Assembly (NCBI RefSeq): GCF_011751945.2
Contig: NZ_CP064951.1
Location: 496,001 to 560,000, forward strand
Direction: 5' to 3'
DNA: 64,000 nt
From: Actinomyces sp. zg-332
GTDB lineage: Bacteria; Actinomycetota; Actinomycetes; Actinomycetales; Actinomycetaceae
Within the stretch, counting starts at the first letter, position 1. Every line of letters starts with the position of its first letter. The position numbers and the translations under genes were made by a program. Below, piece by piece: positions 21,698-27,126 of the stretch. A model generated the notes under the pieces. That model made no database searches. It saw nothing but the letters and a program-made list of their open reading frames with translations, and was not told where the DNA came from.

Positions 21698-22393
21698 ATG
21701 AGGGTATTAGTTGCTAACTGTTCGGTGGACTATTCAGGGCGTCTGGATGCACATTTGCCTTTAGCTAAAAGGGTAGTAATGTTCAAAGCTGATGGCTCTG
21801 TATTAGTGCATTGTGATGGTGGATCATATAAACCCTTAAACTGGATGAGTCCTCCTTGTAAAATTGAAGAAGTACCTTTGAGTGAAGAAGATGTACAAGA
21901 CGCTGTGGAACAAGTTTTACAAGTTGTATCATCTAAAAGTGATGACAGGTTAATACTTAGAATACATGAAGTAATTGACAATATTGAAGTGGACTTAGGT
22001 GAAGATCCAGGTCTTATAAAAGATGGTGTTGAAGCTCACTTACAAAAACTTTTAGCTGAACAAGTTGAGGTCTTGGGTAGCGGTTTTTCTTTAGTAAGGC
22101 GTGAATATCCAACTCCTATTGGTCCAGTTGATTTGCTTGTACGAGATGAAAATAGCTCTTATGTTGCTGTGGAAGTTAAACGCCGTGGAGAAATTGACGG
22201 TGTAGAGCAACTTACTAGATACCTTGAACTGCTTAACAGAGATCCAAAGCTAGCTCCAATAACAGGCATATTTGCGGCTCAAGAGATTCGTCCACAGGCT
22301 AGGACTTTAGCCCAAGATAGAGGTATACGCTGTGTGATTTTGGACTACCAAGCAATGCGTGGAATTGATGATAGTGAAGGAAAGCTTTTCTGA
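21698..22393 (+). CDS. nucS: Endonuclease NucS (EndoMS), non-canonical mismatch repair
   Basis: NucS cleaves both strands at mismatches and replaces MutS/MutL in most actinobacteria. The 231-residue protein has the N-terminal DNA-binding domain ([20 protein letters not shown]) and a C-terminal RecB-like nuclease domain with catalytic Asp in GPVDLLVRD (near 144) and the E-x-K pair in [16 protein letters not shown]. All catalytic residues are present. The C terminus ends GKLF, possibly the sliding-clamp binding peptide of this family. It is followed by a small zinc-site gene, the usual actinobacterial neighbour. Confidence 0.96.
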
Positions 22394-26196: not shown

Positions 26197-26402
26197 CAGA
26201 TTATCAAATATTCCTAGTCTTTATTGGCTAGGTTTTTTGTTTTAACTATTAGACAAAACACATAAGTATTTATCTATGAGATAAACTCATTTTCTCTCTT
26301 ATATATATGGCTAAAATACTTTTATTTCTATTACATAACACTAGATAAGTTTTTACAATTTTTCATTCAAAAATCAACATTTAAATAAATAATAATATTT
26401 CC

Positions 26403-26435
26403 TTGACAAAATGCGGGGGGGGGTAGGTTAATAAT
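26403..26435 (+). promoter_or_regulatory. putative phase-variable promoter with G9 tract
   Basis: A consensus -35 TTGACA (26403-26408) is followed by ATGC, nine G (26415-26423), and then TAGGTTAATAAT, which offers -10 candidates (TTAATA at 26428-26433, spacer 19; TAGGTT at 26424-26429, spacer 15). The homopolymer therefore lies in the promoter spacer, so slippage would change the -35 to -10 distance. The downstream gene starts at 26463 after GGGGAGAA. Confidence 0.55.
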
Positions 26436-26462
26436 GAAATTTATAACTCAAAGGGGAGAATA

Positions 26463-27062
26463 ATGTCAGATAACTATGAGACATCTTTTCAACTAGCACC
26501 AGGTGAGTCTAACGTCGCTGGCGTCAAGGTTTCACCGTCACTTTTGACTGCCTATATTAAGGGCGAATTAATGTGTTCATCTACTCGTTTTGTTTATAAG
26601 ATTCCTAATACAGTGTTGGGAGTAATTCCTTTAGGAAGCGAGGAAAATACTATTCCACTAAAATCAATTGCTTCTGTGAATACTGCAACAAAATTTCATA
26701 TTGGACGCTTTATTTTTGGAATTGTGTTAGCTATTGCTGGTTTTAGCTCGATTACTTCAAGTTTTGTAATTGGATTAATAATGATGGCTCTCGGCGCTGT
26801 GCTTTTAGCTATGACTTTTCCAGCACAGCTAAGAGTCGTAAACCATGCTGGTGGAGTAAATGCTGTTACAGTTTCTATTCTGGAAAAAAGTAAGCTAGAA
26901 AAATTTGCTCGCGAATTTCAAAACAGAGTCTTTGCTGATTTAGAACAGACAAGACACGATGAAGCACAAACTATGAGAATGATGCAAACACAATTAGCTC
27001 AAATGCAGGTACAAAATCAACAGCAAATGATGAATAACCAAAATAACACTGAAAAAGAGTAA
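26463..27062 (+). CDS. Small membrane protein, PH-like N terminus, unknown function
   Basis: The 199-residue protein has no recognised close family. Residues 1-75 look like a small beta-rich, PH-like domain (LSPSLLTAYI-type strands, CSSTRFVYKIPNTVLGVIPLGS). Two membrane helices follow (about 80-98 and 101-119). A short soluble part (VVNHAGGVNAVTVSIL) leads to a C-terminal helix rich in Gln, Met and Asn (MRMMQTQLAQMQVQNQQQ). The start has a clear GGGGAGAA site. It stands alone between tRNAs and thrS, with its own terminator. Its promoter spacer contains a G9 run, suggesting on/off or graded expression. Confidence 0.7.
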   Translation: MSDNYETSFQLAPGESNVAGVKVSPSLLTAYIKGELMCSSTRFVYKIPNTVLGVIPLGSEENTIPLKSIASVNTATKFHIGRFIFGIVLAIAGFSSITSSFVIGLIMMALGAVLLAMTFPAQLRVVNHAGGVNAVTVSILEKSKLEKFAREFQNRVFADLEQTRHDEAQTMRMMQTQLAQMQVQNQQQMMNNQNNTEKE

Positions 27063-27080: not shown

Positions 27081-27126
27081 GTTTAAAATGGGGATAAAAC
27101 ATTATGTTTTGTCCCCCTAAACTTTT
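27081..27126 (+). terminator. terminator after the poly-G-controlled gene
   Basis: GGGGATAAAAC pairs with GTTTTGTCCCC (one G-T pair) over a four-to-six base loop and is followed by CTAAACTTTTT. Confidence 0.8.

What the first reader, a model, noticed from the sequence alone, without database searches (positions are those of the whole stretch)
26403..26435. G9 tract inside a promoter spacer: likely phase-variable expression of an unknown membrane protein
A consensus -35 TTGACA is followed by nine G and then AT-rich -10 candidates, right before a lone gene for a PH-like, two-helix membrane protein. In an AT-rich chromosome a G9 run is very unlikely by chance and is maintained at exactly the point where length changes tune promoter strength. 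The classic precedent is Neisseria porA, where a poly-G run between -35 and -10 sets expression. Promoter-spacer phase variation is little described in actinobacteria.
Basis: partly seen in the sequence, partly recalled or inferred. Interest (0 to 1): 0.68.

Follow-up and report, generated by a model that had tools for sequence, protein, structure and literature searches.

The report
Slippable poly-G promoter of membrane protein
A run of nine G's sits exactly between the two recognition boxes of a bacterial promoter, and relatives keep such a run in the same place but with different lengths, so the bacterium probably dials a membrane protein (and, in related species, many surface proteins) up and down by gaining or losing single G's.

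Summary
In detail: TTGACA (26403-26408), six bases, G9 (26415-26423), -10 candidates, then a lone 199-aa gene (26463-27062). A run of 9 or more G/C is expected about 0.02 times in this window.

All five tract-bearing orthologous promoters (four genera of Actinomycetaceae, this one included) carry a homopolymer just behind TTGAC[A/T]: G9, G13, G8, G10 and, in Actinotignum urinale, C9. Two near-identical loci (G053/G152; 4 substitutions in 790 bp) differ by one indel, G8 versus G10 in the tract. GC-rich Actinomyces homologues have no run.

The arrangement recurs. TTGAC-N3-8-G8 occurs at 32 distinct sites in 213 family genomes, against 7 raw hits for the reversed pattern and 9 distinct sites at a shifted distance. 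TAnnnT is enriched at spacer 14-19 (17 versus 3.8 expected). Many sites precede lipoproteins, pilins and other secreted proteins.

This genome has NucS and no MutS, so long runs should slip unrepaired. The protein is predicted PH-like with an inserted two-helix membrane hairpin.

Mechanism: known kind (Neisseria porA/opc/fetA). New: its recurrence in Actinomycetaceae. Not shown: read-level length mixtures, transcription start, expression changes. Which -10 is used here is ambiguous.

The parts
26213..26232 (+). intrinsic terminator after the tRNA-Gly/Cys/Val cluster (insulates the locus)
   Evidence: stem of 7 pairs followed by TTTTTTGTTT; tRNAs by ARAGORN
26403..26408 (+). -35 box TTGACA (6/6)
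   Evidence: TTGACA or TTGACT is kept in the four other orthologous tract promoters
26415..26423 (+). G9 homopolymer in the promoter spacer (variable tract)
   Evidence: G13, G8, G10 and C9 at the equivalent place in orthologues
26424..26429 (+). candidate -10 TAGGTT (TAnnnT), spacer 15
   Evidence: sequence; equivalent TAGTTT, TACTCT and TACAAT directly behind or within 5 nt of the tract in orthologues
26430..26435 (+). alternative -10 AATAAT (5/6), spacer 21 at n=9
   Evidence: not positionally conserved in orthologues
26453..26458 (+). Shine-Dalgarno GGGGAG
   Evidence: sequence, 4 nt before the ATG
26463..27062 (+). 199-aa PH-like membrane protein; TM hairpin residues 80-116 between strands 5 and 6; long Q-rich C-terminal helix 139-197
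   Evidence: ORF; AlphaFold2 (pLDDT 81); Foldseek (mostly PH domains near the top, E 0.01-0.1); no Pfam family above cut-off
27090..27116 (+). hairpin GGGGATAAAACA-TTA-TGTTTTGTCCCC, probable terminator of the gene
   Evidence: sequence inspection; not reported by the scan (weak T tail)
22028..22384 (+). NucS/EndoMS domain; mismatch-repair type in a genome with no MutS hit
   Evidence: PF01939, E 9e-40, genome 518028-518384; no PF00488

Best explanation
The G9 run is a contingency tract inside a sigma-70-type promoter spacer. Replication slippage adds or removes single G's. With the -10 that abuts the tract, the spacer equals 6+n, so it is 15 bp at n=9, close to but below the usual optimum of about 17 bp. 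Each slip therefore resets transcription of the downstream monocistronic gene, a PH-like protein anchored by a two-helix membrane hairpin. The tract changes expression level (low, medium, high) rather than reading frame. The same arrangement is used at other loci of the family Actinomycetaceae, mostly for surface and secreted proteins, and NucS-type repair, which ignores indels, leaves the tracts free to slip. Shown here: anatomy, conservation of position with variation of length, family-wide enrichment between promoter boxes, and the repair genotype. Inferred: slippage within a strain, the -10 in use, and the effect on transcription.
For: Runs this long are not chance. The run stands behind TTGAC[A/T] in all five: G000 TTGACA-N6-G9-TAGGTT; G224 TTGACA-N6-G13-TAGTTT; G053 TTGACT-N3-G8-tgc-TACTCT; G152 the same with G10; A. 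urinale TTGACT-N2-C9-agcta-TACAAT. G053 versus G152: 4 substitutions in 790 bp and one indel, the tract, G8 versus G10. Several Actinomyces homologues keep TTGAC upstream with no run. TTGACN{3,8}G8 gives 54 raw hits (32 distinct sites) in 213 genomes, against 7 raw for the reversed pattern and 16 raw/9 distinct at distance 20-25. TAnnnT lies at spacer 14-19 in 17 cases versus 3.8 expected, with other bins near background. Downstream genes include lipoproteins, pilins, Tat- and Sec-secreted proteins. NucS present, MutS absent; in mycobacteria such genotypes give frameshifts at 1e-5 to 1e-2 per CFU in runs of 7-9, and NucS does not correct frameshifts (PMC10159617).
Against: No read-level or isolate-level length data for this genome. 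The -10 next to the tract here is weak (TAGGTT, 3/6), and the best-scoring -10 (AATAAT) sits at spacer 21. A separate TATAAC at 26442-26447 could start transcription without the tract being in the spacer. G8 versus G10 could include homopolymer sequencing error. The C-tract version of the pattern is only weakly enriched (39 versus 27 raw). The gene's function is unknown, and it is not an obvious surface antigen, the usual target of phase variation.
Confidence: 0.75

Rival explanations
1. The real promoter uses the -10 TATAAC at 26442-26447, so that the G-run lies around -22 to -30 and overlaps the -35 position, or the run lies in the 5' leader of a longer transcript. Length changes would then act on something other than the -35/-10 spacing, or on nothing.
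For: TATAAC is a 5/6 match to the consensus, and in many actinobacteria the -35 is dispensable (general knowledge). TAGGTT is a poor -10. The promoter scan did not call TTGACA with any -10 at spacing 16-18.
Against: TTGAC[A/T] and its position relative to the run are kept in four other species while the region around 26442 is not. In the family-wide set, TAnnnT peaks at spacer 14-19 and is not raised further downstream.
Confidence: 0.13
2. The run is a fixed sequence element, for instance a binding site or a stiff or A-form-like spacer, kept for its structure and not for its instability.
For: Conserved position across genera.
Against: Length varies from 8 to 13, and the run is C9 on the coding strand in A. 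urinale. The only indel between near-identical loci is in the run. Homologues in Actinomyces do without it.
Confidence: 0.07
3. Chance or assembly artefact: an ordinary promoter in which a random or mis-assembled G-run happens to fall.
For: The genome holds 13 runs of 8 or more, so one near a -35 is not impossible (expectation 0.02). Homopolymer lengths in assemblies are error-prone (PMC9187656).
Against: Recurrence at the orthologous position in four other genomes and family-wide enrichment against two controls.
Confidence: 0.03

Closest known systems
Neisseria porA, opc and fetA promoter-spacer poly-G/poly-C tracts
   Same: Unstable homopolymer between -35 and -10 that sets promoter strength through spacer length (PMC2791445, citing van der Ende 1995; opc poly-C, PMC3960869).
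   Different: Different phylum, and repair is NucS-based instead of MutS-based. The gene here is a PH-like two-helix membrane protein, not an outer-membrane protein. Switching has not been measured here.
Bifidobacterium breve UCC2003 pilus G-tracts
   Same: Actinobacterium with long G-tracts switched by replication slippage; the paper says in one sentence that other UCC2003 G-tracts lie in promoter spacers (PMC9187656).
   Different: The studied tracts are inside reading frames (ON/OFF frameshift). No promoter-spacer case is described in the passages read, and the family is different.
Mycobacterium tuberculosis homopolymer and promoter tandem-repeat variation (glpK, ESX-1 genes, dop/lpdA/cysG promoters)
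   Same: Indel-based reversible variation in an actinobacterium that lacks MutSL (PMC10159617, PMC12817950).
   Different: Coding homopolymers, or copy-number changes of promoter repeats tens of bp long, not a homopolymer between -35 and -10.
Bacterial PH-domain proteins (e.g. PDB 3dcx, DUF1696)
   Same: Predicted seven strands plus a C-terminal helix, with PH-domain structures among the best fold matches.
   Different: A two-helix membrane hairpin is inserted between strands 5 and 6 and the C-terminal helix is long and Gln-rich. No Pfam or NCBIfam family matches above cut-off.

Membership tests
Promoter-spacer homopolymer phase variation (porA type) | Homopolymer of about 8 or more G/C between recognisable -35 and -10 elements | tested here: met
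   TTGACA and G9 are clear. The -10 here is weak, but the family-wide set shows TAnnnT at spacer 14-19.
Promoter-spacer homopolymer phase variation (porA type) | Tract length differs between related genomes while the flanks are conserved | tested here: met
   G053 versus G152: G8/G10 with 4 substitutions in 790 bp; G9, G13 and C9 in more distant orthologues
Promoter-spacer homopolymer phase variation (porA type) | Mixed tract lengths within one strain | not testable with these tools
   No reads available
Promoter-spacer homopolymer phase variation (porA type) | Transcription depends on tract length | not testable with these tools
   Needs reporter or RNA data
Promoter-spacer homopolymer phase variation (porA type) | Indels in the tract escape repair | tested here: inconclusive
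   NucS present, MutS absent; NucS is reported not to correct frameshifts in mycobacteria (PMC10159617), not tested in this organism
PH-domain superfamily (protein product) | Seven-stranded beta fold closed by a C-terminal helix | tested here: inconclusive
   Predicted (pLDDT 81, pTM 0.62); fold matches mostly PH domains at E 0.01-0.1, none below 0.001; no sequence-family match above cut-off

The most novel reading that the evidence does not exclude
Actinomycetaceae possess a widespread, undescribed set of contingency promoters: poly-G (and some poly-C) tracts placed between TTGAC and TAnnnT boxes, upstream of lipoproteins, pilins and other surface proteins, kept unstable because the organism repairs mismatches with NucS, which ignores indels. 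The window locus is one such promoter, kept in four genera and, in one genus, lying between two inverted ISL3-type insertion sequences.
Probability: 0.6. Interest if true: 0.65.

Novelty: new member of a known kind. Interest (0 to 1): 0.55.

Why it matters
Phase variation by promoter spacing is a textbook mechanism in Neisseria, while actinobacterial work has dealt mainly with coding-frame tracts. If confirmed, members of a family that includes opportunists such as Actinomyces and Actinotignum would be heterogeneous populations whose surface proteins drift at high frequency, which affects adhesion, serology and the reading of single reference genomes. It would also link NucS-type repair to a positive use of uncorrected indels. 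The list of sites found here makes this directly testable from existing raw reads.

Tried and rejected
Chance: rejected by run statistics and conservation. Insertion-sequence origin of the tract: ISL3-type copies flank the locus in G053 and G152, but the window locus shows none nearby and the tract precedes the same gene in every genus, so the IS is a passenger or carrier and not the source. C-tract version of the pattern as equally general: only weak enrichment, though individual cases look convincing. The Actinomyces lipoprotein locus as a clean length-variation series: the run is G8, G8, G8 and G12 but flanks also change (a TGG next to the run in G138 is missing in G107), so it supports instability without being pure slippage. 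Order-wide search outside the family: only 3 hits in about 270 genomes, with no convincing pattern of target genes. Plasmid homologues of the protein are distant Firmicutes hits and say nothing about the tract.

Full report
Observation. The sequence reads TTGACA (26403-26408), AAATGC, G9 (26415-26423), TAGGTTAATAAT, and then the ATG at 26463 of a 199-aa gene with a GGGGAG Shine-Dalgarno. The gene stands alone. Upstream, a tRNA-Gly/Cys/Val cluster ends in an intrinsic terminator at 26213-26232. Downstream lies a hairpin at 27090-27116, followed by thrS. The window is 36% GC, and this is its only G/C run of 8 or more. A first-order Markov expectation is 0.019 runs of 9 or more per 64 kb.

Own genome. 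The 1.54-Mb chromosome has 13 G/C runs of 8 or more, against about 2.4 expected. Several lie just upstream of secreted proteins: L003; L017, an LGFP-repeat protein; and L022 and L025, two paralogues that each have G10 shortly before their start codon. Others lie within or across reading frames: L001 (DUF6541), L009 (Abi_2) and L028 (EamA, where the upstream frame ends in a stop directly behind the G9). L013 lies at the 5' end of an ABC-transporter gene. The -35 boxes of the other promoter-proximal runs in this genome are weak; only the window locus has a perfect TTGACA.

Relatives. Homologues of the protein occur in 13 of 213 family genomes, this one included; one of them is Actinotignum urinale DSM 15805. 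This genome and its four closest homologues all have a homopolymer between a TTGAC box and the gene: G9 here, G13 in G224, G8 in G053, G10 in G152, and C9 (coding strand) in A. urinale. Spacing is consistent. With the TAnnnT box nearest the tract, the spacer is 15, 19, 14 and 16 in the four G-tract promoters (equal to 6+n in every case) and 16 in A. urinale. Several homologues in GC-rich Actinomyces keep TTGAC upstream but have no run, and the divergent G006 homologue has neither.

Length variation. G053 and G152 share a locus lying between two inverted ISL3-type copies. Over 790 bp from the -35 box they differ by four substitutions and a single indel, which is two G's in the tract. This is the most direct evidence for tract hypervariability available without reads.

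Family-wide pattern. TTGACN{3,8}G8 gives 54 raw hits in 213 genomes, 32 distinct sites by my count from the table, against 7 raw for the mirror pattern. Moved to a distance of 20-25 it gives 16 raw, 9 distinct. The C8 version is weaker, 39 versus 27 raw. In 55 distinct sites, TAnnnT occurs 17 times at spacer 14-19 where local composition predicts 3.8; the next bin (20-25) has 7 versus 4.1 and the later ones are near background. These sites are not all independent, because some are orthologues. Downstream genes include an Actinomyces lipoprotein (G8, G8, G8 and G12 in four genomes), signal-peptide proteins in several genera, and two pilin- or fimbria-like proteins with G13 (recognised by eye from their N-termini, not by a family search). 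Outside the family but within the order, only 3 of about 270 genomes had TTGACA-N2-7-G8.

Mechanism. Slipped-strand mispairing in the run changes the -35/-10 distance. Known precedents are porA, fetA and opc of Neisseria (PMC2791445; PMC3960869). The genome has NucS, encoded within this window at 22028-22384, and no MutS domain hit. In mycobacteria NucS corrects substitutions but not frameshifts, and runs of 7-9 slip at 1e-5 to 1e-2 per CFU (PMC10159617). The present length gives a spacer of 15 for TAGGTT or 21 for AATAAT, neither optimal, so expression in the sequenced clone is predicted to be low or intermediate. That is an inference. The -10 actually used is the weakest point; the conserved position behind the tract favours TAGGTT, sequence quality favours AATAAT.

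Product. AlphaFold2 with 11 homologues gives pLDDT 81: five strands, a two-helix hairpin at residues 80-116, two more strands and a long C-terminal helix, i.e. a PH-like fold with an inserted membrane hairpin. The best Foldseek matches are mostly PH domains, at E 0.01-0.1. No Pfam or NCBIfam model matches above cut-off. Its function remains unknown; a membrane-tethered PH-like adaptor is the natural guess.

Novelty. The mechanism is known. For actinobacteria I found one passing sentence, on B. breve UCC2003, about promoter-spacer G-tracts (PMC9187656), and no paper on this in Actinomycetaceae in the open-access library; subscription papers are not covered. The new content is the conservation across genera and the family-wide set of such promoters.

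Noticed in passing
G000:C1 1388672-1388680 (L028): EamA-family transporter gene whose upstream reading frame stops directly behind a G9 tract while the rest continues in another frame: a candidate translational (ON/OFF) contingency locus.
   Followed up: partly
G000:C1 1275415 and 1280741 (L022, L025): Two paralogous secreted proteins about 5 kb apart, each with a G10 tract roughly 10-18 nt before the candidate start codons; candidate phase-variable surface proteins.
   Followed up: partly
G000:C1 610496-610504 (L007): C9 tract early in a minus-strand gene for a signal-peptide protein with repeats; the G9-TAGGTT string is the same 15-mer as at the window promoter, in a coding context.
   Followed up: no
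L031, L037, L038 (G053, G152): The promoter-gene module lies between two inverted, nearly identical ISL3-type insertion sequences, like a composite transposon.
   Followed up: partly
L147, L150 (G131): The Actinomyces lipoprotein homologue is split into two frames and its promoter is decayed too (the TTGAC box is altered and the run shortened to G5), as expected of a dead phase-variable locus.
   Followed up: no
window 22028-22384: NucS/EndoMS mismatch-repair nuclease; no MutS_V domain elsewhere in the genome.
   Followed up: yes
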